From Janibacter sp. HTCC2649 (GTDB lineage Bacteria; Actinomycetota; Actinomycetes; Actinomycetales; Dermatophilaceae): a DNA stretch of 64,000 nucleotides. The stretch is from the NCBI RefSeq assembly GCF_000152705.1, contig NZ_CH672413.1:4027254-4091253 (forward strand). Reading direction: 5' to 3'. Each line of letters opens with the position of its first letter. Position 1 is the stretch's first letter. Position numbers and translations under genes: made by a program. Positions 1 through 64,000 of the stretch are shown piece after piece. The notes under the pieces are model-generated. The model saw only the letters and a list, made by a program, of their open reading frames with translations. It made no database searches and was not told where the DNA came from.

Positions 1-1416
1 GCCGAGCAGCTCGGCGGCCTGCAGTCCACGATCCGCACGAGTCGCGCCGAGGTCGAGCGCACCGAGCGGACCGTCGCCGACGCCGAGGCGGCCCTCGAGA
101 CCGACCGCTTGGAACTCGCAGCCCTGACCGCCCGTCTCGAAGAGGCGAGCGCCGAGCCGACCGAGTCGCAGGAGCCCTCCACCGACGAGCGCGACGACCT
201 CGAGCTCGCCGCGAGCCGGGCCCGCACCGCCGAGACCGAGCTCCGCCTCACCCTGCGCACCCGCGAAGAGCGCGCCCGCTCCCTCAAGGGTCGGGCCGAC
301 TCGCTCGAAGGCGCCGCCCGCAACGAGATCCAGGCCCGCGAGAAGCTGCGCCAGCGCCAGGAACGACGTCGTCGGGAGGTGACGATCGCCGACGCAGTCA
401 GCCGCGCGGCGGCATACGCCACCGATCGCATGGCGAGCGCGCTGGAACGCGCCGCTCGACTGCGTGAGGACGCCGAGCGCCAGCGCACCGAGCGCGACGC
501 CGCGGTCCACGCGCTGCGCACCGAGATGGGCACCCACCAGGACGAGCTGCGTGAGCTCACCGACTCGGCCCACCGCGACGAGGTCGCCCGGGCCCGTCAG
601 CTGGCCCGCATCGAGCAGCTGCAGGCCAAGGCCGTCGAGGAGCTCGGGGTCGACCCCGACGTCCTCATGGAGGACTTCGGGCCGCACCAGCTCATCCCGT
701 TCATCGCCGGCCCCGACCACGAGGGCGACCTGCCCATGCCGTCGGCGTTCGTGCGCGACGAGCAGGAGAAGCGTCTGCGGCGGGCCGAGCGGGGACTGTC
801 GGCCCTCGGTCGGGTCAACCCGCTCGCGCTCGAGGAGTTCGCGGCGCTCGAGGAGCGGCACAAGTTCCTCACCGAGCAGCTCGAGGACCTCAAGAACTCC
901 AAGCGCGACCTCCTCGACATCGTCAAGTCCGTCGACGAGCGCGTCGAGCAGGTCTTCACCGAGGCCTTCCACGACACGGCCGCGCAGTTCGAGCAGGTCT
1001 TCCAGCGACTGTTCCCCGGCGGTGCGGGCCAGCTCATCCTCACCGACCCGAGCAACATGCTCACGACCGGCATCGAGGTCGAGGCGCGCCCACCGGGCAA
1101 GAAGGTCAAGCGCCTCTCACTGCTCTCCGGTGGCGAGCGCTCCCTCGTTGCCGTGGCCATCCTGGTCTCGATCTTCAAGGCGCGGCCCAGCCCGTTCTAC
1201 ATCATGGACGAGGTCGAGGCGGCGCTCGACGACACCAACCTCGGCCGACTCATCACGCTCTTCGAGGAGCTGCGTGACAGCAGCCAGCTCATCGTCATCA
1301 CCCACCAGAAGAAGACGATGGAGATCGCCGACGCGCTCTACGGCGTGAGCATGCGCGGGGACGGCATCACGACGGTGGTGTCGCAGCGCATCCGCGACGT
1401 GGCCGCCAGCGCCTGA
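1..1416 (+). CDS. smc: Chromosome segregation protein SMC, C-terminal part (5' end outside window)
   Basis: The frame is open from base 1 to the TGA at 1414-1416, so this is the last 471 residues of a protein of usually about 1,150-1,200. Residues 1 to about 190 are a charged Glu/Arg/Ala-rich coiled coil. Residues about 215-320 are the second coiled-coil section next to the head. The ATPase head half carries the ABC signature LSGGERS (about residue 375) and Walker B FYIMDEVEAALDD (about 399-411). SMC dimers act with ScpA and ScpB to compact and segregate chromosomes in the cytoplasm. The Walker A half and the hinge lie upstream of the window. It ends 18 bp from a convergent signal peptidase gene. 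Identity is firm from the head motifs and from the position upstream of ftsY. Confidence 0.95.
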   Translation, partial: AEQLGGLQSTIRTSRAEVERTERTVADAEAALETDRLELAALTARLEEASAEPTESQEPSTDERDDLELAASRARTAETELRLTLRTREERARSLKGRADSLEGAARNEIQAREKLRQRQERRRREVTIADAVSRAAAYATDRMASALERAARLREDAERQRTERDAAVHALRTEMGTHQDELRELTDSAHRDEVARARQLARIEQLQAKAVEELGVDPDVLMEDFGPHQLIPFIAGPDHEGDLPMPSAFVRDEQEKRLRRAERGLSALGRVNPLALEEFAALEERHKFLTEQLEDLKNSKRDLLDIVKSVDERVEQVFTEAFHDTAAQFEQVFQRLFPGGAGQLILTDPSNMLTTGIEVEARPPGKKVKRLSLLSGGERSLVAVAILVSIFKARPSPFYIMDEVEAALDDTNLGRLITLFEELRDSSQLIVITHQKKTMEIADALYGVSMRGDGITTVVSQRIRDVAASA

Positions 1417-1434
1417 CGCTCCGGGGCGAGAGCC

Positions 1435-2184
1435 TCAGTGGTTGTTGACGCGTCCAAACGACTCGAGCGGCCAGATCCGGAACACGACCGGGCCCACGAC
1501 GCGGTTGAGCGGCACGAAGCGCGCGCACCCTTCGGCCACCGTGCCGCCCCGGCAGTTGACGACGGAGTCGGCGGACTGCGAACGGTGGTCGCCGAGGACG
1601 AGCAGCCGATCGGTGGGCACCCGGATCTCAGGGAAGCACCGTGAGGACCGTGGTGTCGTGTCGCACGTGAGCTCGGGGGTGCGGAACGCGTGGTCCTGGT
1701 AGATGTAGGGCTCCACGAGCGGCTTGTCGTTGACGAGAACCCGCCCGTCCTCGTCGCAGCACTTCACGAGGTCGCCGGGGAGACCGATGACCCGTTTGAC
1801 CGTGTATGCCGTGTTCGACGGCCCGATCCCGGTGAGGTCACCGACCTTGCGCGCCGCCTTGACGAGCGGGTTGGGCGACTCAGGAAGCTGGGCTTCCTGC
1901 CAGGTCGCACCGTGGGAGAAGACGACGATGTCGCCGCGCTCCACCGTGGAGTTCGTGCGGTTGACGATGATGCGGTCACCGATGCGCAGGGTCTGCTCCA
2001 TCGACTGCGACGGCACCCCGAACGGCTTGACGACGAACGTCTGGATGAGCGCAACCGCCAGGACGGCAAGCAGGATCTCGAACCCCACCGGAAGCCTTCG
2101 GCGGGTCCGTCGAGGGGCCCCTGCCGAAGTCGTCGCCGTCACGCGTGAGAGCCTACGCGGCGCCCGGCCGTGCACGCGCGCCAT
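1435..2184 (-). CDS. lepB: Signal peptidase I (first of three in the window)
   Basis: A 249-residue membrane-bound S26 peptidase that removes signal peptides from exported proteins outside the membrane. A basic N-terminus (RRTRRR near residues 25-30) precedes one membrane segment at about 33-52. The catalytic serine is Ser61 in PSQSMEQTL and the general-base lysine is Lys130 in YTVKRVIGLPGD. The later LVLGDHRSQSAD box is also present, so all usual S26 motifs are intact. It converges on smc and is separate from the two lepB-type genes near 35 kb, which are the ones in the usual rplS-rnhB position. Why this strain keeps a separate copy here cannot be told from sequence. Confidence 0.92.
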   Translation of the reverse strand: MARVHGRAPRRLSRVTATTSAGAPRRTRRRLPVGFEILLAVLAVALIQTFVVKPFGVPSQSMEQTLRIGDRIIVNRTNSTVERGDIVVFSHGATWQEAQLPESPNPLVKAARKVGDLTGIGPSNTAYTVKRVIGLPGDLVKCCDEDGRVLVNDKPLVEPYIYQDHAFRTPELTCDTTPRSSRCFPEIRVPTDRLLVLGDHRSQSADSVVNCRGGTVAEGCARFVPLNRVVGPVVFRIWPLESFGRVNNH

Positions 2185-2238
2185 CTCACTGCGGGGTGTC
2201 GTTTTGCAGGGAGGGCCACCCTGGGAGACTCTTGACTC

Positions 2239-2490: not shown

Positions 2491-4451
2491 TGCGCTCCGG
2501 GATCGACCACTCCGCCAGCGACCCCGAAATCCGTCCCCAGGACGATCTCTTCGGCCACGTCAACGGCGGCTGGGTGGCACGCACCGAGATCCCCGCTGAC
2601 CGCGGTCGCTACGGCTCGTTCGACATGCTGCGTGAGAGCGCAGAGCAGCAGGTGCACGACATCATCGCCGCCGTCGCTTCAGGCAACCCGGAGTCCGGCA
2701 CGGTCGCGCGCAAGGTCGGCGACCTCTACCGCTCGTTCATGGACGAGGCGCGCATCGAGCAGCTCGGCGTCGAGCCACTCGCGCCGTTCCTGAGCGCCAT
2801 CGACGAGGTCGCCAGCACGCGTGATGTCCTCGCCCTCCTCGGTCGCTTCCTGCGCGCCGGGGTGGACGGCCTCGTCCACCCCATCGTCAACACGGACGAC
2901 CGGGACTCGACTCGCTATGTCGTCTACCTCGAGCAGGCCGGCATCGGTCTGCCCGACGAGGCTTACTACCGCGAGCCGCAGCACGAGGCGATCCGTTCGG
3001 CCTACCCGGCTCACGTTGCGCGACTGCTCACCCTCTCCGGCGCGTATGCCGGTGACGCGGCGACCGCTGCCGCCGACCGGGTCGTGGCCCTCGAGACCCG
3101 CCTTGCGGCCTCGCACTGGGACACCGTCGCCAACCGTGACGCGGTCAAGACCTACACCCTCGTCGACCGGGCAGAGCTCGACGAGCTGACGCCCGGCGTC
3201 GACTGGGACGCCTTCCTCGAGGGCGCTCAGGCGCCCGACGGCGCGTTCGACCAGGTCATCGCCCGCCAGCCCGACTTCCTGCAGGCCATCAGTGCAGCCC
3301 TGTCCGAGGTCGAGCTCGCGCACTGGCAGGACTGGCTGCGCTGGCGCGTCGTCCACGCCCTCGCGCCCTATCTCACCGATGCGATCGTCGCCGAGAACTT
3401 CGACTTCTTCGGCCGCACCCTCTCCGGCGTCCCGGAGATCCGGGAGCGCTGGAAGCGCGGCGTGGGTCTGGTCGAGGAGGCGCTCGGCGAGGCCGTCGGG
3501 CAGCTCTACGTCGAGCAGCACTTCCCGCCGCGGGCCAAGGACCGGATGGTCGAGCTCGTCGCCAACCTCGTCGAGGCGTTCCGCCGCAACTTCGAGACCC
3601 TCGAGTGGATGGGCGCCGACACGCGACGCGAGGCCGTCGCCAAGCTCGAGGCGTTCACTCCCAAGATCGGCTATCCCGACGAGTGGCGCGACTACTCCGC
3701 GCTCGCCGTCGACGGCGACGACCTGGTCGGCAATGTCGCGAGGGCCTCGGCCTTCGAGATCGACCGCAACCTCGCCAAGCTCGGTGGACCCGTCGACCGC
3801 GACGAGTGGTTCATGACGCCGCAGACGGTCAACGCCTACTACAACCCCGGGCTCAACGAGATCGTCTTCCCGGCCGCGATCCTGCAGCCGCCCTTCTTCG
3901 ACGTCGACGCCGACGATGCCGTCAACTACGGCGGCATCGGTGCGGTCATCGGACACGAGCTCGGCCACGGCTTCGATGACCAGGGCTCGCAGTTCGACGG
4001 CTCGGGCAACCTGCGCAACTGGTGGACCGAGGCCGACCGCGAGAACTTCGACGGTCGCGCCCAGCGGCTCATCGCCCAGTTCAACGACCTGGAGTCGCGC
4101 GACGCCCCGGGGCACAAGGTCAACGGCGCGCTCACGGTCGGCGAGAACATCGGTGACCTCGGCGGGCTCACGATCGGGCACGCGGCATACCGGATCTCCA
4201 CCGAAGGTGGCGACGCGCCGGTCCTCGACGACCTCACGGGTGACCAGCGGTTCTTCGTCGGTTGGGCCCGCGTGTGGTGCGGTCTGGCCCGCGAGGCCGA
4301 GGCCGTGCGCCTCATCGCCATCGACCCGCACGCGCCGATGGACCTGCGCGCCAACGCCGTGCGCAACCTCAGCGAGTTCCACGAAGCCTTCGACGTCACC
4401 GAGGGTGACGCGATGTGGGTGCCCGAGAAGGACCGCGTCCGGATCTTCTGA
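2490..4451 (+). CDS. M13 family zinc metallopeptidase (neprilysin/PepO-like)
   Basis: A 653-residue protein, the normal size for bacterial M13 oligopeptidases. The zinc site is HELGH at residues 489-493. The third ligand region is GENIGDLGG with Glu552 as ligand and Asp556 as the conserved aspartate. NAYYNP upstream is the M13 substrate-binding motif. The C-terminal stretch with a conserved Arg-Asn motif (LRANAVRNL) also fits. I see no signal peptide, so cytosolic peptide degradation is likely, as for PepO. Start: ATG overlapping the TGA of the preceding small gene by one base. It is followed after 34 bp by ftsY. Substrate is unknown. Confidence 0.93.
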   Translation: MRSGIDHSASDPEIRPQDDLFGHVNGGWVARTEIPADRGRYGSFDMLRESAEQQVHDIIAAVASGNPESGTVARKVGDLYRSFMDEARIEQLGVEPLAPFLSAIDEVASTRDVLALLGRFLRAGVDGLVHPIVNTDDRDSTRYVVYLEQAGIGLPDEAYYREPQHEAIRSAYPAHVARLLTLSGAYAGDAATAAADRVVALETRLAASHWDTVANRDAVKTYTLVDRAELDELTPGVDWDAFLEGAQAPDGAFDQVIARQPDFLQAISAALSEVELAHWQDWLRWRVVHALAPYLTDAIVAENFDFFGRTLSGVPEIRERWKRGVGLVEEALGEAVGQLYVEQHFPPRAKDRMVELVANLVEAFRRNFETLEWMGADTRREAVAKLEAFTPKIGYPDEWRDYSALAVDGDDLVGNVARASAFEIDRNLAKLGGPVDRDEWFMTPQTVNAYYNPGLNEIVFPAAILQPPFFDVDADDAVNYGGIGAVIGHELGHGFDDQGSQFDGSGNLRNWWTEADRENFDGRAQRLIAQFNDLESRDAPGHKVNGALTVGENIGDLGGLTIGHAAYRISTEGGDAPVLDDLTGDQRFFVGWARVWCGLAREAEAVRLIAIDPHAPMDLRANAVRNLSEFHEAFDVTEGDAMWVPEKDRVRIF

Positions 4452-6923: not shown

Positions 6924-7855
6924 AGCGCCTGTCCGGGTGGTTGTTCGCGCCCATGCCCGTGGCCCGCGTCGCGGTCCTGCGCTGGCTCGTCTTCGCCTTC
7001 GTCATCATCGACGTCCTGCTGCTCCACACGTCGGGCTGGTACCACGGTTATGCCGACCCGGTCTGGTACGAACCGTTGGTCATGGGCAAGGTGCTGCACC
7101 TGCCCGCGGCCTCGGTGCTGCTCGTCCAGGGCCTCAAGTGGGGCTGCGTCCTGGCGGCTCTCGCGGCCATGACCGGCCGGGCGCCACGACTGCTCGGCTG
7201 GGCCGTCGCCGTGGGCTGGATCTGGTACCAGTACGTCGCCTTCAGCTACGGCAAGGTCGACCACGACCGCGCAGACTTCGTCGTCGCGCTCGCCCTGCTG
7301 CCGACCGTGGGCCTCGCGCACCTGTCGGACCGTCGCCGCTCCGAGGCCGCCGGCTTCGCGCTCCGGGCCGTGCAGATGGCTGCTGTCGCGACCTACTTCC
7401 TCTCCGCGTGGGCCAAGCTCCGCTTCGGCGGGGTGGAGTGGGTCAACTCGGCCACCATGGTGCGCGCCGTGGTGCGCCGCGGCACACCGTGGGCCGAGTG
7501 GCTCCTCGAGGTCCCGTGGACCCTGCACGCGGCTCAGTGGGGACTGATGATCGCCGAGATCACGGCTCCGGTGATCTTCCTGCTGTCGGAGAGGTGGCGA
7601 CGACGTGCCGTCGCCGGCTGGTTCGTCTTCCATGCCATGACGTATGCCGCGATCACGATCGCGTTCTGGCCGCACCTCGTGATGATGCTCGCGTTCCTCC
7701 CGCTGGAGGAGTATGCGGACCGCCTGCGGGCGCGCTGGGGGAGGAGCCGCGCCGGCCGATGGTGGGTCGAGAGAAAGGTCGGAGGAGTCAGCTCGGGCGC
7801 TGAGCTGCCGGAAGCGAGCACGCCGGTGTCCCACCGGGCAGCCGGTGCCGGTTGA
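6920..7855 (+). CDS. HTTM-domain integral membrane protein (vitamin K-dependent carboxylase-like fold)
   Basis: A 311-residue protein with about seven membrane segments. The pattern of Trp/Tyr-rich helices, the SYGKVDHDRADF stretch and the YFLSAWAKLRFGGVEWV segment fit the HTTM family, whose eukaryotic relatives include gamma-glutamyl carboxylase. Bacterial members have no firm function. Start ATG 6920 overlaps the preceding stop (ATGA); a GTG at 6908 is possible. Its 3' end runs 68 bp into the convergent DCC-family gene. HTTM and DCC proteins often sit together, which suggests a joint thiol-redox membrane role (inference). Confidence 0.78.
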   Translation: MKRLSGWLFAPMPVARVAVLRWLVFAFVIIDVLLLHTSGWYHGYADPVWYEPLVMGKVLHLPAASVLLVQGLKWGCVLAALAAMTGRAPRLLGWAVAVGWIWYQYVAFSYGKVDHDRADFVVALALLPTVGLAHLSDRRRSEAAGFALRAVQMAAVATYFLSAWAKLRFGGVEWVNSATMVRAVVRRGTPWAEWLLEVPWTLHAAQWGLMIAEITAPVIFLLSERWRRRAVAGWFVFHAMTYAAITIAFWPHLVMMLAFLPLEEYADRLRARWGRSRAGRWWVERKVGGVSSGAELPEASTPVSHRAAGAG

Positions 7856-8180: not shown

Positions 8181-8226
8181 GACTCCAGTGTCGCACCGGT
8201 GAGCTGACCCTCGAACGCGGGCAGGC

Positions 8227-8339
8227 GGCATACCCTCCGCGCTTGCGAAACACACTTCTTACGCGCACGGGGAACGTGCAACATGGCTGTAACACAAGGC
8301 GGTGCGACGTGAAACGGGCCGATCGCAGACTCCTTCCCC
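8227..8339 (+). promoter_or_regulatory. amtB upstream region with possible GlnR-type half sites
   Basis: Between the DCC gene and amtB lies a relatively AT-rich stretch. GTAAC at 8289-8293 and GAAAC at 8311-8315 are 17 bp apart, and further GAAAC (8247-8251) and GGAAC (8271-8275) elements precede them. GlnR of Actinobacteria binds GTNAC-n6-GNAAC type boxes upstream of amtB; the spacing here is not the standard 6 bp, so this is only a candidate nitrogen-control region. A GTATGCCG-family octamer (as CGGCATAC) sits at 8226-8233. Confidence 0.3.
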
Positions 8340-10111: not shown

Positions 10112-10116
10112 GGCTC

Positions 10117-10210: not shown

Positions 10211-12580
10211 ATGACGGACGTCACGGACGTTGCGGCTCGACGGCTCGACCTCGCGGGAACGCGGGCCTTCGAGACTGCCGGTTCGGGCGTGCAGCGCCGA
10301 CTCCGGCTGGCGGAGTTCAACCGCGAGTGGTTGGACGGCGTCTGGCAGGAGGCGACGAAGGGACAGCGGGTCGAGGGTGTCGCCCTCGCCGCGGTGGGCA
10401 GCGTGGGCAGGGGAGACGCTGGACCGCTCTCGGACTACGACCTGGTCCTCCTGCACTACGGACGGACGCTCTCGACCGACGAGATCACCCGGCTCGCCGA
10501 CCGCATCTGGTACCCGATCTGGGACGCCGGAGTGCGACTCGACCACAGCGTGCGGACCGTGAGCCAGTGCCGCACGGTCGCCGCCGAGGACCTCACCGCG
10601 GCCGTGGGGCTGCTCGACATCTCGGCTGTCGCGGGGGACGCCGAGGTCGTCGCAGCAGCTCGGGCCACGGTCAGTCACGACTGGCGCGCCAATGCCCGCA
10701 AGCGTCTGCCGCAGCTCACCGAGGCCATGGCCGTGCGCCACCACCGCCACGGGGACCTCGCCCAGTCCATCGAGCCCGAGCTCAAGGAGGCGCACGGCGG
10801 CCTGCGTGACATGACCGTCCTCGCCGCCCTCGCCGAGGCCTGGCTCGCCGACCGACCGCGAGGTGAGGTCGACACGGCATACGGGCTCCTTCTCGATGTG
10901 CGCGACGCCGTGCACGTCACCACCGGTCGCGGACGCGACCGCCTCGGACGTGAGGACCACGACGCCGTCGCCGCGCTCTTGGGCTACGACGACCCCGACG
11001 ACCTGCTCGCCGACGTGTCCGACGCTGGCCGGGCCATCGCCTATGCCCTCGACGGAACCGTTCGGCGGGCCAGCCAGTCTCAGCGCGCTCGCGTCCTGCG
11101 CGTCGGTCCGCGGCGTCCGCAGATGACGCCCCTGGGCTACGGACTGTTCGAGAGCGACGGCGAGGTCGTCCTCGGGACCGGCCGGCTCATCGACAGCGAC
11201 CCCCACCTGCCCCTGCGGGCGGCGGTGCTCGCGGCTCGGGCCAACCTCCCCATTGCACCGACGACCCTCGAGAACCTCGCGACGAAGTGCGCCGACCTGC
11301 CGACCCCGTGGTCGCCTTTGGCACGCGGCCTCTTCAGTGACCTGCTCGCCGCCGGCCCGGGTCTCGTCACCGTCTGGGAAGGGCTCGATCAGCAGGGCAT
11401 CATCGAGCGCTGGCTGCCCGAGTGGGTTTCCGTGCGTTCGCGGCCGCAGCGCAATGCCGTGCACCGCCACACGGTCGACCGCCACCTCATCGAGACCGTC
11501 GTCCACGCGACGGGCCTGCTGCGCGGCGTTGGACGTGCGGACCTCCTGCTGCTCGCCGCCCTGCTCCACGACATCGGCAAGATCCCGGGCGCTCGCGACC
11601 ACTCCGTGACGGGCGCGCCCATCGCCGAGACGGTCATGCGTCGCCTCGGCCACCCCGAGGCCGATGTCGAGGTCGTCGCGTCGCTCGTGCGCGAGCACCT
11701 CACGCTCATCGAGCTCGCGACCCGCCGCGACCACTCGGACCCGCGCACGATCGACGCCGCCCTGGCCGCAGTCGACGGCGAGGCCGACCAGTTCGAGCTG
11801 CTGCTGGCTCTCACCGAGGCCGATGCGGTGGCTGCTGGACCCAAGGCCTGGACCGACTGGCGGGCCGCGCTCCTGGGCCAGTTCGCCACAGCGGTGCGGG
11901 CGCGCCTGAGCCCTCCGACGCCGGCCGTCGGCCACTCGGAGCCGTCGCTCGTGCCGGATGACCTCATCAACACCCTCGCCACGGGGGAGCCCTACGTCGA
12001 CGTCGTCTCCAACGGCGGCTCCTACCGGATCGACATCGCCGACCGCGACCGCCTGGGCCTCTTCGCCGACACGGCCGGGCTGCTCGCCGCCGAAGGGCTC
12101 GTGGTCCGCACGGCCGTGCTGCGCACTGTCGATGGGATCGCGGTCAACGAGTGGCACGTCGAGAGCCCGAGTGACACCGAGCCGGAGAAGGCCCGTCTCG
12201 TGCGCGGTCTCATGCGTCTGGCGACCGGTGACCGGGCGCCGTTGAGCCTGCTCGACCGGCGCCGTCAGTTCGCCACCCGTCCCAGTGGTTCGTCGACGAT
12301 CGGGACGCCCGGTCAACCGCGGGCCCTCGTGGTGCCCGGTGCGAGCACGGACGCCACGGTCATCGAGGTGCGCGCCCACGATCGCCCCGGGCTGCTCCAC
12401 GAGCTGGGAATGTGCTTCGCGAAGGCGGGAGTGTCGGTCCGGTCGGCGCACATTGCGACGTATGCCGGTCAGACCCTCGACACGTTCTACGTCTCGGACT
12501 TCTCGGGTCGCCCGCTCGACCCGGGCAAGGTCGCGCAGGTCGTCGCCGCCGTCATCGACACCTGCGACGGCACCGTTTGA
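10211..12580 (+). CDS. glnD: [Protein-PII] nucleotidyltransferase GlnD
   Basis: A 789-residue multidomain enzyme that modifies and demodifies PII in response to glutamine. The nucleotidyltransferase site is GSVGRGDAGPLSDYD (residues 63-77) with the Asp pair. The HD hydrolase domain has LLHDIGK with His453-Asp454. Two C-terminal ACT domains follow at about 605-680 and 717-785, the second with the HDRPGLLHELG signature. All activities look intact. The start is ATG 10211 with the ribosome site AGGGGAG. In Corynebacterium and Streptomyces the homologue adenylylates rather than uridylylates GlnK, and the same is likely here. Confidence 0.95.
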   Translation: MTDVTDVAARRLDLAGTRAFETAGSGVQRRLRLAEFNREWLDGVWQEATKGQRVEGVALAAVGSVGRGDAGPLSDYDLVLLHYGRTLSTDEITRLADRIWYPIWDAGVRLDHSVRTVSQCRTVAAEDLTAAVGLLDISAVAGDAEVVAAARATVSHDWRANARKRLPQLTEAMAVRHHRHGDLAQSIEPELKEAHGGLRDMTVLAALAEAWLADRPRGEVDTAYGLLLDVRDAVHVTTGRGRDRLGREDHDAVAALLGYDDPDDLLADVSDAGRAIAYALDGTVRRASQSQRARVLRVGPRRPQMTPLGYGLFESDGEVVLGTGRLIDSDPHLPLRAAVLAARANLPIAPTTLENLATKCADLPTPWSPLARGLFSDLLAAGPGLVTVWEGLDQQGIIERWLPEWVSVRSRPQRNAVHRHTVDRHLIETVVHATGLLRGVGRADLLLLAALLHDIGKIPGARDHSVTGAPIAETVMRRLGHPEADVEVVASLVREHLTLIELATRRDHSDPRTIDAALAAVDGEADQFELLLALTEADAVAAGPKAWTDWRAALLGQFATAVRARLSPPTPAVGHSEPSLVPDDLINTLATGEPYVDVVSNGGSYRIDIADRDRLGLFADTAGLLAAEGLVVRTAVLRTVDGIAVNEWHVESPSDTEPEKARLVRGLMRLATGDRAPLSLLDRRRQFATRPSGSSTIGTPGQPRALVVPGASTDATVIEVRAHDRPGLLHELGMCFAKAGVSVRSAHIATYAGQTLDTFYVSDFSGRPLDPGKVAQVVAAVIDTCDGTV

Positions 12581-12623: not shown

Positions 12624-14234
12624 GTGTTCACGAGCCTCTCCGACCGCCTGACAGCGACCTTCAAGAACCTCCGTACCAAGGGGCGCTTGTCCGAGTCCGA
12701 CGTCAACAAGACCGTCCGCGACATCCGCATGGCGCTTCTCGATGCCGACGTGGCCCTGCCCGTCGTCAAGGAGTTCACGTCGGCGGTCCGTGAGCGTGCG
12801 CTCGGCGCCGAGGTCTCCCAGTCGCTCAACCCGGCCCAGCAGATCGTCAAGATCGTCAACGAGGAGCTCGTCGACATCCTCGGCGGGCAGACCCGCACGA
12901 TCCGCTTCGCCAAGACCGGCCCGACCGTCATCATGCTCGCGGGCCTCCAGGGCGCAGGCAAGACGACCCTCGCCGGCAAGCTCGCCCGCTGGCTCAAGGA
13001 CCAGGGCCACACCCCGATCCTCGTCGCCGCCGACCTCCAGCGACCCAACGCCGTGACCCAGCTCCAGGTCGTCGGTGAGCGTGCCGGCGTCCCGGTCTTC
13101 GCTCCCGAGCAGGGCAACGTCGGCGGCCACGACGCCGTCGGCGGCACCGGCGAAGGCACCCGAAGCTTTGGTGACCCGGTCACGGTCTCGCGTGACGGCA
13201 TACGCGAAGCAGTCAACAAGCACCACGACGTCGTCATCGTCGACACCGCCGGACGCCTCGCGGTCGACGCCGACCTGATGAAGCAGGCCGGAGACATCCG
13301 CGCCGCCATCAACCCCAACGAAGTCCTCTTCGTCATCGACGCGATGATCGGTCAGGCTGCTGTCGAGACCGCCGAGGCGTTCCTCGAGGGCGTCGACTTC
13401 ACCGGTGTCGTCCTGTCCAAGCTCGACGGTGACGCCCGCGGTGGTGCGGCCCTGTCGGTCGCCAAGGTCACCGGCCGCCCGATCATGTTCGCCTCGACCG
13501 GCGAGGGCGTGAAGGACTTCGAGGTCTTCCACCCCGACCGCATGGCCTCGCGCATCCTCGACATGGGTGACGTCCTCACCCTCATCGAGCAGGCGGAGAA
13601 GGCGTTCGACCGTGGCCAGGCCGCCGAGATGGAGCGCAAGTTCCTCGCGGCCGAGGACTTCACGTTCGACGACTTCCTCCAGCAGATGTCGGCCATCAAG
13701 AAGATGGGCTCGCTCAAGTCGATGCTCAAGATGATGCCGGGCATGGGGCAGATGTCGGCACAGCTCGACAACCTCGACGAGCGTGAGTTCGACCGCGTCG
13801 AGGCGATGGTCCGCTCGATGACGCCGTTCGAGCGCAACCACCCCAAGCAGATCAACGGCTCCCGCCGCGCCCGCATCGCCGGCGGTTCAGGTGTCACCGT
13901 CTCCGAGGTCAACCAGCTGCTCGAGCGCTTCGGTGAGGCGCAGAAGATGATGAAGCAGCTCGCCCGCGGCGGCGGCATCCCCGGTATGCCGGGCATGGGC
14001 GGTGGCGGCGGCAAGAAGGCCCGTCAGCAGCAGCAACAGATCCGCGGCAAGAAGTCGAAGTCGGGCAACCCTGCCAAGCGGGCGGCCGACGCGCAGGCGG
14101 ACGCCCAGCGCGCCGCGGCCAAGCCGGCTGGTGGTTCGTTCGGTGGCGGAGCCGGGGCAGATGCCGGCATCGATCCCGCGAACCTCGACCCGTCGCAGCT
14201 GCCCAAGGGCTTCGAGAAGTTCCTGGGCAAGTGA
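12624..14234 (+). CDS. ffh: Signal recognition particle GTPase Ffh/SRP54
   Basis: 536 residues. The N and G domains carry GLQGAGKTT (from about residue 107), DTAGRL (about 206) and SKLDGDARGG (about 264). The Met-rich M domain (about 350-460) binds 4.5S RNA and signal peptides. A Gly/Ala/Gln-rich tail follows to the C-terminus. An unusual insert of about 17 residues rich in Gly (around residues 162-180, between GN and GDPV) sits in the G domain where related proteins read directly through. The GTG start has -10 TAACCT ending 6 bp upstream (leaderless). It works with FtsY encoded at 4.5 kb. Confidence 0.96.
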   Translation: MFTSLSDRLTATFKNLRTKGRLSESDVNKTVRDIRMALLDADVALPVVKEFTSAVRERALGAEVSQSLNPAQQIVKIVNEELVDILGGQTRTIRFAKTGPTVIMLAGLQGAGKTTLAGKLARWLKDQGHTPILVAADLQRPNAVTQLQVVGERAGVPVFAPEQGNVGGHDAVGGTGEGTRSFGDPVTVSRDGIREAVNKHHDVVIVDTAGRLAVDADLMKQAGDIRAAINPNEVLFVIDAMIGQAAVETAEAFLEGVDFTGVVLSKLDGDARGGAALSVAKVTGRPIMFASTGEGVKDFEVFHPDRMASRILDMGDVLTLIEQAEKAFDRGQAAEMERKFLAAEDFTFDDFLQQMSAIKKMGSLKSMLKMMPGMGQMSAQLDNLDEREFDRVEAMVRSMTPFERNHPKQINGSRRARIAGGSGVTVSEVNQLLERFGEAQKMMKQLARGGGIPGMPGMGGGGGKKARQQQQQIRGKKSKSGNPAKRAADAQADAQRAAAKPAGGSFGGGAGADAGIDPANLDPSQLPKGFEKFLGK

Positions 14235-23766: not shown

Positions 23767-23784
23767 CAGAACGGGGTATGCCGC

Positions 23785-52254: not shown

Positions 52255-52290
52255 CGTATGCCGCCCGCTCACCAGAGCGGGCGGCATACG
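52255..52290. terminator. tsf terminator built from an inverted pair of the octamer
   Basis: CGTATGCCGCCCGCTC (52255-52270) and GAGCGGGCGGCATACG (52275-52290) are perfect 16-bp complements with an ACCA loop. The outer arms are the window-wide octamer in inverted orientation, just as inverted DNA uptake sequences form terminators in Neisseria and Haemophilus. It terminates rpsB-tsf. Confidence 0.85.
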
Positions 52291-53080: not shown

Positions 53081-53833
53081 GTGACCACTGACGTCCAGAC
53101 TGGGCTCGCTCCCACCACCACTGGTGAGCGCGCTCGACGGGTGCTTCTCAAGCTCAGCGGAGAGGTGTTCGGCGGTGGCAGCATCGGCGTCGACCCCGAG
53201 GTCGTGCGCGGCATCGCCAAGCAGATCGCCGCAGCCATCAACGGTGGCACGCAGGTCGCCATCGTCGTCGGTGGAGGCAACTTCTTCCGCGGAGCCGAGC
53301 TCCAGCAGAAGGGCATGGATCGCTCGCGCGCCGACTACATCGGCATGCTCGGCACCGTGATGAACTGCCTCGCGCTGCAGGACTTCCTCGAGAAGGAAGG
53401 CATCGACACCCGCGTGCAGACCGCCATCACGATGGGTCAGGTCGCCGAGCCCTACATCCCGCGTCGCGCGATCCGCCACCTCGAGAAGGGGCGTGCCGTG
53501 ATCTTCGGAGCAGGAGCCGGTATGCCGTACTTCTCCACCGACACCGTGAGCGCCCAGCGCGCCCTCGAGTGCCACTGCGACATGGTCCTCATGTCCAAGA
53601 GCGGCGTCGATGGTGTCTACGACTCGGACCCGCGGACCAACCCCGACGCACGCAAGCTCGACACCCTGACCTACCGGGAGGCTCTGCAGAAGGGCCTTCA
53701 GGTCGTCGACGCGGCCGCGTTCAGCCTCTGCATGGAGAACGACCTGCCGATGATGGTCTTCGGCATGGAGGGCGAGGGCAACATCACCCGCGCCATCCAG
53801 GGCGAGCGCATCGGGACCCTCGTCACTGCCTGA
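53081..53833 (+). CDS. pyrH: UMP kinase PyrH
   Basis: 250 residues. [48 protein letters not shown] and [13 protein letters not shown] form the nucleotide-binding site of the amino-acid-kinase fold UMP kinase. The start is GTG 53081 with ribosome site GAGGAGG; the frame upstream has no similarity. It precedes frr, the standard order. Confidence 0.96.
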
Positions 53834-53934
53834 GCCCGAGCTGACGAGTCGCTCACGCGCTCACCGGATTGTTTGACAGACTGGACCCTGCCGCCTGACT
53901 TCAGCGGACGGCATACCGAAGGAGATTTGACCGC

Positions 53935-55389: not shown

Positions 55390-56251
55390 CCGCAGGGTTG
55401 TCCGGCGGCATCTCATCGCTGCCGAATCTCGCGAGGTAGTGCCACACCCTCTTGAGTGACTGCTCGTCGTAGCGGCCGGTGCGTGATGCCTCGCCGATGA
55501 CCGACGGGTCGAGCTGCCCGTCGCGGGCGATCTCCTCGCCGAGGCTGACGAACTCCGGTCCCCGGTAGCCGGGGTGGCGGCGCAGCTCGTCGAGCGACAG
55601 CCGGAAGCCTGCGTGCCACTCGACCGCGCAGCCGAGCCGGTTCGCGGACTCCTCGACGAAGGTGCCTCGATAGCAGGGGTCGAGCACCAACGCCTCCACG
55701 TCGCGGTCGAGGAGGAGCTCGCCGTGCACGTGCGCCTCGACGTAGTCATCGAGCACTTCTTCGCGGCCACGGTCGTCCGCTTCGGCCAACGCGACCAAGG
55801 TCGACACGCGTGAGGCGACGCCGAAGTGCTCTGGCTCCTCGTAGCTGTCCGGGTAGCAGAACGTCGTGCGGCTCAGGGTGCCGGCCGTCAGGCGGAAGTG
55901 GGCCGACCCGAAGCGGGGCGAACCACCGATCGTCCGGTGGCGAAAGTTGAGCGCGCCGTACTTGGGCCGGTGGACCGCATCGGCCTCGTCGTAGGCCCCC
56001 GCGAAGATGCGGCTCTCCCACAGCCAACGGCTTCCACCTGCGTATGCCGTCAGTCCACCGTTGCTCGTACCGGTCTCGAACTGCGACCGGTAGAGGCGGT
56101 CTCGGGTCATGAGCTCCAGGATCGGCGAGCCACCCGGGCCTCCCACGATCCGGTCGGGATGGAAGTTCAGCGTCACCCGGACGGACGGGTCGACGGACCC
56201 GCCCGTCGCCAAGGACCTGACGTGCTCGAGGGCGTGCTCCTGGGGCCGCAC
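55379..56251 (-). CDS. DUF3626 family protein
   Basis: 290 residues. The central part (VTLNFHPDRIV, FETGTSNGG, GGSPRFGSAHFRL and LVLDPCYRGTFVEE) matches DUF3626, a family of unknown role. Histidine-rich motifs suggest an enzyme but no catalytic set is clear. The GTG start shares one base with the stop of the upstream gene (TAGTG). Function unknown. Confidence 0.75.
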   Translation of the reverse strand: MRPQEHALEHVRSLATGGSVDPSVRVTLNFHPDRIVGGPGGSPILELMTRDRLYRSQFETGTSNGGLTAYAGGSRWLWESRIFAGAYDEADAVHRPKYGALNFRHRTIGGSPRFGSAHFRLTAGTLSRTTFCYPDSYEEPEHFGVASRVSTLVALAEADDRGREEVLDDYVEAHVHGELLLDRDVEALVLDPCYRGTFVEESANRLGCAVEWHAGFRLSLDELRRHPGYRGPEFVSLGEEIARDGQLDPSVIGEASRTGRYDEQSLKRVWHYLARFGSDEMPPDNPAVRE

Positions 56252-59755: not shown

Positions 59756-60854
59756 GCACCAGCTCGGCGGCCTCGTCGACGGTGTCGACGAGGTGCACGA
59801 CCTGACCCATGCCGCGTTCGCGCCCGAGCGCTTCGATGGCGTTCCACACGGGCACCTCGCGTGACCAGTGGTCGACCCCGACGAGGACCAGTGGCGCCAG
59901 GGTGCGCTCGGCCTCGGCGTAGTACAGCGGCGTGATCGCCTGGAAGATCTCCTGCACCGTGCCGGCCGCACCATGCAGGACGACGAGGCCGGCGGTCGAG
60001 CGCGCGAGTAGCCCGTCCTCACGGATCGCATTGCTGAAGTACTTCGCGATGCCGTTGCAGAAGACGTTGGGCGGCTCGTGCCCGTAGAACCAGGTGGGAA
60101 TGCCGATCGAGCGAACAGCCCTGTCCGGCACGAGGATTCGCACGATCTCGTCGTAGACGTCCAGTGCCAGCCCGGCCCAGTCCGCGATCGACGGACGGAA
60201 CGAGGGTATGCCGGCCAGTCGCCCGAGTGCCTCGCTCACCACCGCGTCCGTTGGACACAGCGCGCCGAGGTTGGCCGCCTCCATGGCCCCGGGCCCACCG
60301 CCGGTGGCGACGACCAGTCCCGCGGCGGCGAGGGTGTGTCCGAGACGGGCGGCACCGGCATACGCCTCGCTGTCGCGCGACAGCGCGTGTCCACCCATGA
60401 CGCCGACGACGGGTGCGTCGCCGACGAACTCGGTGAGGGCGTCGCTGATGGAGTCGTCATGGATGGCACGCAGGAGGGTGACGAAGACGTCGCGATGGTG
60501 GTCGGCTTCACGTGCCCATGAATACGCGCGGGCGTCAGGGGTCTGCTCGTAGCCGTACCTCCCCAACCCGGCATAGAGCTCGTGCGGTTGGTAGAGGCTC
60601 GCCCGGTAGGGGTTCACGGGGGCATGCGGGTCGGTGGGGAAGACGAGCGCGCCGTGGAGGCGCAGGTGCTCGTCGAGCTCGGGGGAGAGGCGGCCACCGA
60701 GGACGATGAGGCCGTCGAGGTCGGTGCGGGCGAGGAGCCGGTCCTCGTGGCGGGTGAGGTCGAGGTCCTGCAACCTCAGCCCCGACAGCGGAGCCCCACT
60801 CGCGACGGCGGCATCGAGGTCGCGCAGGCTCTCGATCTCGTTCATGGATCCCAT
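59739..60854 (-). CDS. LOG family (Rossmann-fold nucleotide-binding) protein
   Basis: 371 residues. VVATGGGPGAMEAANLGA, VVLHGAAGTVQEIFQ (variant of PGGxGTxxE) and VLVGVDHWSRE place it in the LOG/lysine decarboxylase-like superfamily, often phosphoribohydrolases of nucleotide monophosphates. An N-terminal extension of about 150 residues precedes the core. Starts at 60854 (MGSMNEIE) or 60845 are equally plausible. Confidence 0.83.
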   Translation of the reverse strand: MGSMNEIESLRDLDAAVASGAPLSGLRLQDLDLTRHEDRLLARTDLDGLIVLGGRLSPELDEHLRLHGALVFPTDPHAPVNPYRASLYQPHELYAGLGRYGYEQTPDARAYSWAREADHHRDVFVTLLRAIHDDSISDALTEFVGDAPVVGVMGGHALSRDSEAYAGAARLGHTLAAAGLVVATGGGPGAMEAANLGALCPTDAVVSEALGRLAGIPSFRPSIADWAGLALDVYDEIVRILVPDRAVRSIGIPTWFYGHEPPNVFCNGIAKYFSNAIREDGLLARSTAGLVVLHGAAGTVQEIFQAITPLYYAEAERTLAPLVLVGVDHWSREVPVWNAIEALGRERGMGQVVHLVDTVDEAAELVLSSRG

Positions 60855-60952: not shown

Positions 60953-62368
60953 ATGCACTCACGAACCTTCTTCACCCGTCGATCCACCGTCGCGCTCGCA
61001 GTGGTCGGCGCCGTCGCACTCACCGGCACCACGGCATACGCCGCCGGTTCGCTGTCCTCCCACGGAGGCGCGGCGCGTCTCGATGGTGACCAGACCAAGA
61101 GCGTGCGCAACGCCATCGAGGGCGGCACGTCCGACAACGTCATCCTGCTCATCGGCGATGGCATGGGCGACTCCGAGATCACGTCGGCGCGCTACTACCA
61201 GGACGGCGCGGCCGGCCGCCTCCCCGGCATCGACGCCCTCCCACTCACCGGTCAGTACACGACGTACTCGCTGACCAAGGACGGCAAGCCGGACTACGTG
61301 CCCGACTCCGCCGCCACCGGCAGCGGCTGGGCGACCGGCACGAAGACCTACGACAACGCCGTGTCTGTCGACATCAAGGGCAAGGCGCAGAAGACGCTGC
61401 TCGAGCTCGCCAAGGCCAAGGGCCTCAAGACCGGCGACGTCACGACCTCCGAGATCCAGGACGCCACCCCGGCCGTCCAGGTCTCGCACATCTCGGCCCG
61501 CTCCTGCTACGGCCCCGTGGCCACGAGTGCGAAGTGCCCCGAGGCGGCCCTCGAGAACGGCGGCCTCGGTTCGATCACCGAGCAGCTCCTCAACACCCGC
61601 CCCGACGTCACCTTCGGTGGCGGTGCGGCGACGTTCGCCGAGACGGCAAAGGCCGGAAAGTATGCCGGTCTCACCCTGGCGCAGCAGGCCCAGGTTCGTG
61701 GGTTCCAGACCGTGACCGACAAGGCCGGCCTGGCCTCGGTGAGCTCGGCCGACCAGAAGAAGCCCGTGCTCGGACTCTTCGGCCAGGGCAACCTGCCCGT
61801 GCGTTGGACCGGCCCCGCCGCCACACCCACCGGTGGCGCCCAGGCACCGGCACCGTGCACCGCCAACCCGGAGCTGCCGACCACGCAGCCCTCGCTCTCC
61901 GACATGACGACGAAGGCGATCTCCCTGCTCGACAGCAAGGAGCGCGGCGCGAAGGGCTTCTTCCTCCAGGTGGAGGGCGCGAGCATCGACAAGCAGGACC
62001 ACGCCGCGAACGCGTGTGGCCAGATCGGTGAGGCGATCGACCTCGACGAGGCCGTGCAGGCCGCTCTGAAGTTCGCCAGGAAGGACGGTCACACCACCGT
62101 CATCGTCACCGCCGACCACGGGCACACGAGCCAGATCGTCGAAGCCGGCTCGACCACCCCGGGTCTCACGGCCAACCTGCTCACGACCGAGGGCAGCCCG
62201 CTGACCCTGAGCTATGGCACTGCGGCCGCTGGTGGTTCGCAGCAGCACACCGGCACCCAGGTGCGCATCGCCGGCTACGGCCCGCAGGCAGCCAACGTCG
62301 TCGGCCTCACCGACCAGACGGACCTCTTCTTCACGATCTCGCGGGCGCTCAAGCTCGACCGTCGCTGA
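60953..62368 (+). CDS. phoA: Alkaline phosphatase (PhoA family), secreted
   Basis: 471 residues with a twin-arginine signal ([16 protein letters not shown], cleaved near AYA-AG). The zinc/phosphate site has IGDGMGDSE (Asp69), the nucleophile Ser119 in [30 protein letters not shown] and QQHTGTQV. Export by the Tat system would allow metal loading in the cytosol. It is followed by a strong terminator. A candidate PHO box is upstream. Confidence 0.93.
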
Positions 62369-62384
62369 ACCTCAAGGTGTGACC

Positions 62385-62418: not shown

Positions 62419-62447
62419 TGCTGCGCGCCCGGGGATAGGGTCGGGGT

Positions 62448-63911
62448 ATGCCCGTAGTGACCCAGAAGTCCGTGCTCTCCTCCGTCCCGACCCAGCTGTT
62501 CATCGCGGGGGAGTGGCGTGACTCGCTCAGTGCCACGACGTTCCCCGTCCAGGATCCGGCGACCGGCTCGGTGCTGGTGGAGGTCGCCAATGGCACAGTC
62601 GCCGATGGGGCTGCGGCGCTCGACGCAGCCGTTGCGGCACAGGCGGATTGGGCCGCGACAGCGCCTCGGGTGCGTGGTGAGATCCTGCGTCGTGCCTTTG
62701 ACCTGTTGACTGCTCGCGCGGACGAGTTCGCGATGCTCATGACCCTCGAGATGGGCAAGCCGCTCGCCGAGTCGCGGGGAGAGGTCGCCTATGGCGCCGA
62801 GTTCTTCCGCTGGTTCAGCGAGGAGGCCGTGCGGATCCACGGCCGATATTCGGTCAATCCCGCCGGCGGGTCGCGTCTGCTCACGATGCAGAAGCCGGTC
62901 GGGCCGACGTTCATGATCACGCCGTGGAACTTCCCGTTGGCGATGGGCACCCGCAAGATCGGTCCCGCCATCGCGGCGGGCTGCACCATGGTCGTCAAGC
63001 CTGCCCACGAGACGCCGCTGTCGATGCTGGCCCTGGCTGCCCTGCTCGAGGAGGCGGGACTGCCGGCGGGCGTGCTCAACGTCGTGACGACAGCTGACAC
63101 GGCCGTCGTCGCCGAGCCGATCATCCGCGACCCACGGCTGCGCAAGCTGACCTTCACCGGATCAACGGCGGTGGGGCGCCGACTGGTGGAGCAGTCGGCG
63201 GAGCAGCTGTTGCGTGTGTCGATGGAGCTGGGTGGCAACGCGCCCTTCCTCGTGTTCGAGGACGCTGACGTCGATGCCGCCGTGGAGGGCGCGATGCTCG
63301 CCAAGATGCGCAACATCGGGGAGGCGTGCACGTCGGCGAATCGCTTCCTGGTGCACGAGTCCGTGGCCGAGGAGTTCTCCGCGGCACTGGCTCGGCGGAT
63401 GGGTGGGCTCAGGGTCGGCAAGGGCACCAAGAGTGGTGTCGATGTCGGGCCGCTCATCACCGACAAGGCCCGTGAGGGCGTCGACGAGCTCGTGCGTGAC
63501 GCCGTCGACCGTGGTGCCACGGTGCTGACCGGTGGCGAGAAGATCGCCGGTCGCGGTCACTTCTACGCGCCGACCGTGCTCACGGGCGTGCCGGCTGGCG
63601 CGCGAGTCCTCACCGAGGAGATCTTCGGACCGGTGGCGCCGATCACGACCTTCGCCGACGAGGCCGAGGCGATCCGGGCGGCGAACTCCACGGAGTACGG
63701 CCTCGTGGCCTACGCCTACACCCGCGACCATGGCCGGGTGATCCGCATCAGCGAGGCGCTGGAGTTCGGGATGGTCGGCATCAACACCGGCATCGTCTCC
63801 AACGCGGCCGCACCGTTCGGTGGTGTCAAGCACTCGGGCTTCGGCCGTGAGGGTGGCTTCGAGGGCATCCACGAGTACCTCGAAACCACCTACGTCTCCC
63901 TCAACCCCTGA
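62448..63911 (+). CDS. NAD(P)-dependent aldehyde dehydrogenase (succinate-semialdehyde type)
   Basis: 487 residues. The cofactor site is TPWNFPLAMGTRKIGPA and TFTGSTAVGRRL, the general base MELGGNAPFLVF and the nucleophile Cys294 in GEACTSANRF. The tail TEYGLVAYAYTRD and GREGGFEGIHEYLETTYVSL matches GabD (succinate-semialdehyde dehydrogenase). The ATG has -10 TAGGGT ending 6 bp upstream (leaderless). Not part of a visible gab operon. Confidence 0.88.
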   Translation: MPVVTQKSVLSSVPTQLFIAGEWRDSLSATTFPVQDPATGSVLVEVANGTVADGAAALDAAVAAQADWAATAPRVRGEILRRAFDLLTARADEFAMLMTLEMGKPLAESRGEVAYGAEFFRWFSEEAVRIHGRYSVNPAGGSRLLTMQKPVGPTFMITPWNFPLAMGTRKIGPAIAAGCTMVVKPAHETPLSMLALAALLEEAGLPAGVLNVVTTADTAVVAEPIIRDPRLRKLTFTGSTAVGRRLVEQSAEQLLRVSMELGGNAPFLVFEDADVDAAVEGAMLAKMRNIGEACTSANRFLVHESVAEEFSAALARRMGGLRVGKGTKSGVDVGPLITDKAREGVDELVRDAVDRGATVLTGGEKIAGRGHFYAPTVLTGVPAGARVLTEEIFGPVAPITTFADEAEAIRAANSTEYGLVAYAYTRDHGRVIRISEALEFGMVGINTGIVSNAAAPFGGVKHSGFGREGGFEGIHEYLETTYVSLNP

Positions 63912-63921
63912 CCTTCGACTT

Positions 63922-63967
63922 ATTGCGCAATCCGTCGGACCGGCGGACTGATTGCGCAATACGTCGG
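63922..63967. repeat. ATTGCGCAAT repeats after the aldehyde dehydrogenase gene
   Basis: The palindrome ATTGCGCAAT occurs at 63922-63931 and 63951-63960, each followed by NCGTCGG, making a 17-bp direct repeat spaced 29 bp; the pair also forms an imperfect hairpin through the CGTCGG/GGCGGA centre. It probably terminates the dehydrogenase transcript. The window ends 33 bp later with no further gene visible. Confidence 0.5.
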
Positions 63968-64000
63968 GTACGGGTACGAAGGTGCGATAGCGAGGCGTCG

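What the first reader, a model, noticed from the sequence alone, without database searches (positions are those of the whole stretch)
1..64000. Octamer GTATGCCG / CGGCATAC is heavily over-represented
Reading both strands I find about 46 copies of GTATGCC/GGCATAC, 45 of them in the extended form GTATGCCG. With about 70% GC the chance expectation over 64 kb and two strands is 2-3 octamers. Orientation is even (about 24 and 22), so it is not a polar KOPS- or Chi-like signal. Eleven copies fall in the roughly 6% of the window that is non-coding, about five-fold denser than in genes. Near-miss variants (GTATGGC, GTATGCG, TTATGCC) are rare. This pattern fits a DNA uptake sequence, a modification or restriction-linked site, or a nucleoid-protein site. 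I know of no such motif described for this group.
Basis: partly seen in the sequence, partly recalled or inferred. Interest (0 to 1): 0.85.

Follow-up and report, generated by a model that had tools for sequence, protein, structure and literature searches.

The report
Actinobacterial DNA uptake signal with dialects
An eight-letter DNA word, GTATGCCG, is repeated about 3,000 times in this actinobacterial genome and hundreds to thousands of times in most surveyed species of its family, while some other genera carry a one-letter variant; it likely works as a self-recognition tag for taking up DNA of one's own kind, a role known from two families of Gram-negative bacteria.

Summary
GTATGCCG occurs 45 times in the window (about 1 expected) and 2,982 times in the 4.24-Mb genome (reversed control 59). 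Of 186 surveyed species of the family, 108 carry at least 100 copies per Mb, strands balanced (101,176 and 101,512). In 22 sampled genomes of other families counts are 2-167.

Some genera are enriched for one-base variants (GGATGCCG, GAATGCCG, GTATGACG; less certainly GTATGCGG, GTACGCCG), instead of or beside GTATGCCG. In eight sister species 187 of 225 aligned sites are perfect, against about a third of composition-matched octamers. Synonymous-codon shuffles give 13 of 194 genic copies. Fourteen of 68 intergenic copies form convergent hairpin pairs. A conjugative-type island lacks the motif (chosen post hoc).

These features resemble DNA uptake sequences of Neisseriaceae and Pasteurellaceae. 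The genome encodes ComEA, ComEC and Tad-locus proteins; ComEC and tad genes are required for transformation in Micrococcus luteus.

Best reading: an independently evolved uptake-signal system with dialects in Gram-positive Actinobacteria. Uptake, receptor and methylation are untested; ComEC and a Tad marker do not separate motif-rich from motif-poor species. The listings of ten full-text searches showed no report of it.

The parts
410..417 (-). GTATGCCG copy
1804..1811 (+). GTATGCCG copy
3044..3051 (+). GTATGCCG copy
4183..4190 (-). GTATGCCG copy
7642..7649 (+). GTATGCCG copy
8226..8233 (-). GTATGCCG copy, intergenic by the caller
10875..10882 (-). GTATGCCG copy
12460..12467 (+). GTATGCCG copy
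13196..13203 (-). GTATGCCG copy
13984..13991 (+). GTATGCCG copy
14452..14459 (+). GTATGCCG copy
16169..16176 (-). GTATGCCG copy
17355..17362 (-). GTATGCCG copy
17914..17921 (+). GTATGCCG copy
20465..20472 (+). GTATGCCG copy
20746..20753 (-). GTATGCCG copy
21621..21628 (+). GTATGCCG copy, intergenic
22047..22054 (-). GTATGCCG copy
23776..23783 (+). GTATGCCG copy, intergenic
24305..24312 (-). GTATGCCG copy
25243..25272. Inverted (divergent) pair of copies (25243-25250 - and 25265-25272 +) between two diverging genes by the caller; hairpin, -27.2 kcal/mol in a 60-nt fold, z -3.5
27892..27899 (-). GTATGCCG copy
28054..28061 (+). GTATGCCG copy
33392..33399 (-). GTATGCCG copy
34145..34152 (+). GTATGCCG copy, intergenic
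34873..34880 (+). GTATGCCG copy
36892..36899 (-). GTATGCCG copy
38394..38401 (+). GTATGCCG copy
43793..43800 (-). GTATGCCG copy
44273..44280 (-). GTATGCCG copy
44943..44950 (+). GTATGCCG copy
47450..47457 (+). GTATGCCG copy
49018..49025 (+). GTATGCCG copy
50087..50094 (-). GTATGCCG copy, intergenic
50281..50288 (-). GTATGCCG copy, intergenic
52256..52289 (.). Inverted (convergent) pair (52256-52263 + and 52282-52289 -), 28 bp past the stop of the 51398-52228 gene and before a converging gene; 15-bp perfect stem, -41 kcal/mol in a 60-nt fold (z -6.6), terminator-like
53520..53527 (+). GTATGCCG copy
53909..53916 (-). GTATGCCG copy, intergenic
56042..56049 (+). GTATGCCG copy
60206..60213 (+). GTATGCCG copy
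60356..60363 (-). GTATGCCG copy
61032..61039 (-). GTATGCCG copy
61660..61667 (+). GTATGCCG copy

Best explanation
GTATGCCG is a genome-wide repeated, non-palindromic octamer that likely acts as a DNA uptake signal: during natural transformation a surface DNA receptor, predicted to belong to the Tad/Flp pilus or ComEA apparatus, would bind it, so that DNA of the same or a kindred species would be preferentially pulled in through ComEC and recombined. Shown directly: about 3,000 evenly oriented copies in the genome; high density in 108 of 186 surveyed family members; one-base variant words enriched in other genera; strong site conservation within the genus (tested in the window); inverted-pair hairpins between genes; absence from one conjugative-type island; ComEA, ComEC and Tad-locus genes in the genome. 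Inferred: the organism is or recently was transformable; a sequence-specific receptor exists and its changes drive the dialect changes; copies accumulate because motif-bearing fragments are taken up and recombined more often; paired copies double as transcription terminators.
For: Magnitude: 45 against 0.72-1.12 expected in the window; 262 against 7.8 in 424 kb; 2,982 against 59 for the reversed control. Not codon or protein driven: 194 genic copies against 12.8 (largest 20) in 100 synonymous-codon shuffles. Not polar: at most 53% on one strand over 15 sampled places for any replichore placement tried; pooled 101,176 against 101,512 in 108 species. Site conservation in 8 sister species: 187 of 225 against 29-39% for same-composition octamers, identity 0.91-0.97 at the 8 positions, 0.62-0.92 around them except 0.97 at +11. 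Seven convergent inverted pairs 18-26 bp apart with 11-15-bp stems between genes; three of them folded, z -6.6 to -10.5. Dialects: sample ranking, whole-genome counts, placed on a tree. Mobile island: 0 copies in 34.7 kb, 25 expected, with TraG/TraD-type coupling protein and IS21 IstB. Machinery: ComEA and ComEC, Tad loci, no PilT over the cut-off in the genus. Micrococcus luteus precedent: ComEC and the tad genes required for transformation (PMC4322843, passages). DUS precedent: eight dialects, inverted pairs associated with terminators (PMC3630211, passages).
Against: No uptake or transformation data for this organism. ComEC and the TIGR03816 Tad protein are equally present in motif-poor genomes, so machinery presence does not predict the motif. 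No receptor identified. Dialect change is mostly not in place: only 2 of 19, 2 of 33, 2 of 14 and 2 of 23 homologous sites show the simple swap (above the 0.2-0.9% control, but most sites differ), and two GGATGCCG genomes share only 6 of 24 sites, with no matched control computed for that pair; strong site conservation is therefore shown for the window's own genus only. Motif density does not rise with native codon usage (quartiles 0.52, 0.63, 0.59, 0.44 per kb). The island was picked after seeing a gap in the site list. Close pairs as such are not in excess (16 against 12.6). Two of the five dialect words (GTATGCGG, counted only in a sample; GTACGCCG) and the GGATGCCG signal of G009 are weaker.
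Confidence: 0.75

Rival explanations
1. A HIP1-like repeat: a very frequent octamer kept by a DNA modification enzyme, mismatch-repair bias or chromosome-structure protein and not by DNA uptake (HIP1 of cyanobacteria is recalled from memory).
For: High frequency (likeness to HIP1 recalled), strong site conservation in the genus, even orientation.
Against: Not palindromic; inverted-pair hairpins between genes; variants changing by one base at several different positions; absence from a conjugative-type island (post hoc).
Confidence: 0.12
2. A nucleoid- or chromosome-organising protein site spread over the chromosome.
For: Present at 8 to 24 copies per 20 kb in 14 sampled stretches and at 45 in the window; the four other stretches (0 to 5 copies) were fetched because of gaps in the site list.
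Against: KOPS-like signals are polar (recalled), and this is not. Weak sites are not generally enriched: 15 of 24 one-base variants are below expectation, four are 2 to 4 times above it.
Confidence: 0.06
3. A restriction-modification or self-recognition site, the motif being over-represented because methylated copies protect or mark DNA.
For: Non-palindromic sites exist for some restriction systems (recalled); an 8-bp word with sharp ends resembles a recognition site.
Against: Restriction sites are usually avoided (recalled), here the word is enriched 34-fold over Markov and 50-fold over the reversed control; hairpin pairing between genes and one-base variants over a family are not expected. 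Methyltransferases were not searched for.
Confidence: 0.04
4. A Chi-like recombination hotspot recognised by a helicase-nuclease.
For: Octamer, non-palindromic, genome-wide.
Against: Chi is oriented along replichores (recalled); here the share on one strand is at most 53% over 15 sampled places for any origin placement tried.
Confidence: 0.02

Closest known systems
DNA uptake sequence (DUS) of Neisseriaceae and its dialects (Frye et al. 2013, PMC3630211; passages read)
   Same: Short word in very high numbers; variants differing slightly between branches of one family; inverted pairs associated with terminators.
   Different: Different sequence (DUS is GCCGTCTGAA, PMC6370729 passages); high-GC Gram-positive family; no PilT over the cut-off in the genus, so a ComP-like type IV pilin receptor is not expected (ComP not searched); uptake untested; sites mostly not shared across a dialect change.
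Uptake signal sequence (USS) of Pasteurellaceae (PMC12616744, passages)
   Same: Core word with weaker flanking preferences (recalled for USS); here +8 T, +13/+14 T/C and +18 T outside genes.
   Different: Different sequence (USS sequence recalled); PMC12616744 says DUS and USS are considered convergent, and by inference this would be a third origin.
Flp/Tad-pilus natural transformation of Micrococcus luteus (Angelov et al. 2015, PMC4322843; passages)
   Same: ComEA/ComEC and Tad loci are present in this genome.
   Different: The term 'uptake sequence' occurs 0 times in that paper and in the 2021 follow-up PMC8467076 (term search only).
HIP1 repeat of cyanobacteria (recalled)
   Same: Extremely frequent octamer.
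   Different: HIP1 is palindromic (recalled); this word is not.

Membership tests
DNA uptake sequence (functional class) | Short non-palindromic word hugely over-represented genome-wide | tested here: met
   2,982 copies against 59 reversed control; 262 against 7.8 by Markov in 424 kb
DNA uptake sequence (functional class) | No strand polarity | tested here: met
DNA uptake sequence (functional class) | Enriched between genes, inverted pairs forming terminator-like hairpins | tested here: met
   1.9-fold denser between genes; seven convergent hairpin pairs, three folded; termination itself not tested
DNA uptake sequence (functional class) | Variants (dialects) among related genera | tested here: met
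DNA uptake sequence (functional class) | Depleted in recently acquired mobile DNA | tested here: inconclusive
   One island 0 against 25 expected, chosen post hoc; no gradient with codon usage
DNA uptake sequence (functional class) | Competence machinery present | tested here: met
   ComEC over the PF03772 cut-off, ComEA and Tad loci; DprA not searched
DNA uptake sequence (functional class) | Motif raises DNA uptake or transformation | not testable with these tools
   needs the bench
Neisseriaceae DUS/ComP system | Type IV pilus with PilT and ComP minor pilin | tested here: not met
   No TIGR01420 match over the cut-off in any of the 9 genomes of the genus; ComP itself not searched
Chi site | Orientation biased along replichores | tested here: not met
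   At most 53% over 15 sampled places
KOPS | Polar towards the terminus | tested here: not met
HIP1-like repeat | Palindromic octamer | tested here: not met
   Sequence is GTATGCCG / CGGCATAC
Restriction-modification site | Cognate methylation of the word | not testable with these tools
   needs long-read signal data

The most novel reading that the evidence does not exclude
A third, independently evolved DNA-uptake-signal system, the first in Gram-positive bacteria: an ancestral GTATGCCG tag in one actinobacterial family, read by a Tad-pilus- or ComEA-linked receptor, with repeated dialect switches and losses that act as genetic barriers between genera.
Probability: 0.65. Interest if true: 0.93.

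Novelty: new variant of a known kind. Interest (0 to 1): 0.85.

Why it matters
Sequence-specific DNA uptake by such words is described for Neisseriaceae and Pasteurellaceae (PMC12616744 passages). A dialect-bearing tag across an actinobacterial family would show that self-DNA preference evolved again with a different envelope and a different pilus. It would give a simple handle (one octamer in donor DNA) for transforming hard-to-manipulate actinobacteria, and a comparative set (108 GTATGCCG-rich and 69 GTATGCCG-poor species, the latter including dialect carriers) in which a Tad-type DNA receptor could be sought by association.

Tried and rejected
Explanation by codon or protein sequence: rejected by synonymous-codon shuffles. 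Polar Chi/KOPS: rejected. Dispersed long repeat or mobile element: flanks of the copies are diverse. Presence of ComEC (57 of 58 genomes) or of the TIGR03816 Tad protein (36 of 36, 35 over the cut-off) as predictor of the motif: no discrimination. The L032-type Tad ATPase as the competence pilus: it matches TIGR01420 at 1.2e-17, whereas the best matches of motif-rich G002 and G003 are only 1.2e-9 and 4.8e-10 (29 candidates per genome scored), so it is not favoured. In-place dialect conversion: mostly not seen. Codon-score gradient between native and foreign genes: none. G016's top 8-mers look like a CRISPR-type repeat, not a dialect (no CRISPR program run). The G023 sample's copies share about 12 bases of downstream flank, so they look like a repeat family; I do not count G023 as clear. 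The first tree used wrong reading frames and is discarded; one search replaces it. One search stopped on a script error and was repeated. GTATGCGG was not counted genome-wide (80-kb sample of G027 only).
Full report
Observation. GTATGCCG occurs 45 times in the window, against a mean of 0.72 and a largest value of 5 in 100 dinucleotide shuffles. By an order-2 Markov model it is the top 8-mer (45 against 1.12, z 41; the best 8-mer not overlapping it has z about 9). The whole genome (4,235,068 bases, 7 contigs; the window is C1:4027254-4091253) holds 1,486 forward and 1,496 reverse copies; the same word read backwards occurs 59 times. In 424 kb of the genome (18 stretches of 20 kb plus the window) it occurs 262 times against 7.8 expected.

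Specificity. Of the 24 one-base variants in those 424 kb, 15 are below expectation (for example GTATGGCG 2/8, GTATGACG 2/6, GTATGCTG 0/3, GTATGCCA 0/4), 5 are at 1.06-1.59 times it, and four are higher: TTATGCCG 3.84 (3 copies), CTATGCCG 2.60, GTAGGCCG 2.59, GTTTGCCG 1.99. The flanks add weak preferences in copies outside genes: A at -9/-8, G at -2/-1, T at +8, T and C at +13/+14, T at +18, T at +36/+37.

Not a by-product of coding. My codon-model gene caller puts 194 of 262 copies inside genes (0.54/kb) and 68 outside (1.01/kb); in the window it is 34 and 11, with 9.1% of the window non-coding. A cruder caller gave 36 and 9, with 5.4% non-coding. In genes the word is read mainly as Tyr-Ala on the same strand (86) or Ala-Tyr on the opposite strand (68). 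It carries 86 of 377 in-frame TAT codons. Shuffling synonymous codons over the same 363 genes 100 times leaves 12.8 copies on average, largest 20.

Not polar. At 15 sampled places forward and reverse counts are roughly even (extremes 5/10 and 10/6); for the origin and terminus placements tried (replichores of 5 to 10 places), the leading-strand share is at most 133 of 249, 53%.

Kept by something. In 8 other species of the genus (81-86% nucleotide identity, 24-49 kb of the window aligned) 187 of 225 aligned sites are perfect copies (74-94% per species), against 29-39% of same-composition octamers. Per-base identity is 0.91-0.97 at the eight positions and 0.62-0.92 around them, with one outside position (+11) at 0.97.

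Hairpins. Of 16 neighbouring pairs closer than 80 bp in 424 kb (12.6 expected by Poisson, so closeness itself is not unusual), seven are convergent inverted pairs 18-26 bp apart between genes with perfect stems of 11-15 bp. 19 of 68 intergenic copies, 14 of them from these pairs, have a perfect stem of 7 bp or more in the 50 bases from the motif, against 57 of 1,000 random intergenic 50-mers and 6 of 194 genic copies. Four pairs were folded: the window pair at 52256-52289, 28 bp past a stop codon and before a converging gene, gives -41 kcal/mol, z -6.6; L032 -52, z -10.5; L030 -41.6, z -6.8; the divergent window pair at 25243 -27.2, z -3.5.

Islands. Positions C1:150416-185150 (34.7 kb) hold 0 copies, 25 expected from the other 344 kb. 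They encode a TraG/TraD-type coupling protein, IS21 IstB and a T2SSE-type ATPase. I fetched this place because the site list showed a gap, so the Poisson value is post hoc. A split of genes by codon score showed no gradient.

Distribution. Among 57 relatives, the 8 other species of the genus have 1,971-3,277 copies; the 27 other genera of the family are patchy; the 22 genomes of other families hold 2-167. In the family survey, own genome included, 108 of 186 species (53 genera) have at least 100 per Mb (median 447, up to 1,356), 9 have 51-99 and 69 have less (median 10). URHB0013 (1,988 copies, control 248) and Ornithinimicrobium sp. CNJ-824 (841, control 12) are motif-rich; J. indicus (18) and the other 11 of 14 named genomes (14-149) are not. 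By identical counts, g63 is the genus of J. indicus (16 of 16 species poor), g68 that of CNJ-824 (30 of 31 rich; the poor one matches the Ornithinicoccus record) and g74 that of URHB0013 (9 of 9 rich).

Dialects. In samples of 38-100 kb from 27 other genera, a leading 8-mer in several is a one-base variant: GAATGCCG (G020, 31/1.4), GGATGCCG (G033 44/3.6; G024 23/2.8; G009 56/8.3), GTATGACG beside GTATGCCG (G034 20/0.7, G011 17/0.8), GTATGCG (G027, 50/4.3 in 80 kb), GTACGCCG (G030, 32/4.9). G010, G014, G017, G018, G021, G022 and G035 show none; G016 looks CRISPR-like; G025, G026 and G031 are unclear in the sample. Whole-genome counts over 34 genomes: GRATGCCG in G033 3,984 (reversed control 293), G024 3,916 (443), G020 3,647 (258), G009 1,353 (321); the other 30 have 351-1,328, so G009 is weak. 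GTATGDCG in G034 4,011 (617), G011 3,747 (884), G012 2,147 (765), G019 1,641 (638), G025 926 (549), G013 909 (342); the other 28 have 23-314; its reversed control ends in GTATG and may itself be raised by the motif. GTACGCCG over 24 genomes: G030 2,216 (143), G031 1,359 (167), Austwickia 1,125 (171), the other 21 have 162-752, so this dialect is less sure. On a LeuS tree (30 rows, 958 columns, one gene, 8 of 27 inner branches open, the two outgroup rows not together), GTATGCCG or GTATGNCG occurs in both main groups of the family, GGATGCCG in two or three separate places, and G027 (GTATGCGG) is sister to G029 (GTATGCCG) at 100/99. I infer an ancestral GTATGCCG with repeated switches and losses.

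Turnover. At homologous sites of genomes that differ in dialect (G028 against G024 and G033, both directions), the simple swap is found in 2 of 19, 2 of 33, 2 of 14 and 2 of 23 cases, against 0.2-0.9% for control octamers; most sites are not shared. The G029/G027 pair had only 2.9 kb aligned (1 of 5, 1 of 2 and 0 of 1, control 1-9%) and says nothing. Two GGATGCCG genomes (G024, G033) share 6 of 24 sites. New dialects thus seem to build up mostly at new sites.

Machinery. The genome encodes ComEC (PF03772 over its cut-off; TIGR00361 3e-50) directly after ComEA (TIGR01259 2.1e-23, TIGR00426); the TIGR01259, TIGR00426 and TIGR00361 scores are below those families' curated cut-offs. A Tad locus has TIGR03819 (411.6 bits) and TIGR03816 over their cut-offs, a TIGR03815 relative below its cut-off and a TIGR03817 helicase close by. 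No match over the PilT cut-off exists in the 9 genomes of the genus. In Micrococcus luteus, ComEC and the tad genes (two clusters; tadB only partly) are required for transformation (PMC4322843, passages). ComEC occurs in 57 of 58 genomes, own included, and TIGR03816 in 36 of 36 (35 over the cut-off), so these do not explain which species carry the motif.

Interpretation. The combination matches what is described for neisserial DUS in the passages of PMC3630211 that I read: very high counts, dialects following phylogeny, inverted pairs associated with terminators. The most likely mechanism is biased uptake during natural transformation: fragments with the word would be taken up more often, and recombination would enrich the word. 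The receptor is unknown; Tad minor pilins or ComEA are candidates by analogy only.

Literature. The listings of ten full-text searches showed no report of an uptake sequence in Actinobacteria; four listings were cut (20 of 643, 20 of 43, 10 of 66, 15 of 37 papers). GTATGCCG itself gave 643 papers, of which the 20 listed are unrelated by title. Of papers I saw passages of PMC4322843, PMC3630211, PMC6370729 and PMC12616744 and a term count for PMC8467076, none in full. The library lacks most subscription journals and all bioRxiv preprints.

Noticed in passing
L016:404-17304 (G000:C1:31404-48304): A 17-kb stretch without the motif, GC mostly 0.60-0.64, no genes called between 2578 and 12582 by the native codon model: probably a second foreign island.
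   Followed up: partly
L017:10416 to L019:5150 (G000:C1:150416-185150): Conjugative-type island with what looks like its own Tad-like gene set beside a TraG-type coupling protein and IS21 genes, free of the motif.
   Followed up: partly
L041-L042 (genome G016): Top octamers and nonamers (such as GTCATCCCC, TCCCCGCAT, ATGCGCGGG, 22-23 copies each) overlap like a CRISPR-type repeat, not a dialect.
   Followed up: no
L067-L068 (genome G023): The 15 GTATGCCG copies of the sample share much of the 12 bases downstream, so they look like a repeat family inside one gene or element.
   Followed up: no
genus g68 (G147-G177): In 20 of 31 species the reversed control is below 60 per genome; 19 of these are motif-rich, a clean set for experiments. 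The one poor species, G155, has the counts of the Ornithinicoccus halotolerans record.
   Followed up: no
own copies outside genes, -9 to +37: Weak A/T preferences at about -9, +8, +18 and +36/+37, very roughly helical-turn spaced, which could mean a bend or an extended receptor contact.
   Followed up: partly
L025:15888-20000: Very long repetitive protein (cut by the end of the stretch) with glycine/aspartate-rich repeats, resembling calcium-binding surface repeats (by eye).
   Followed up: no
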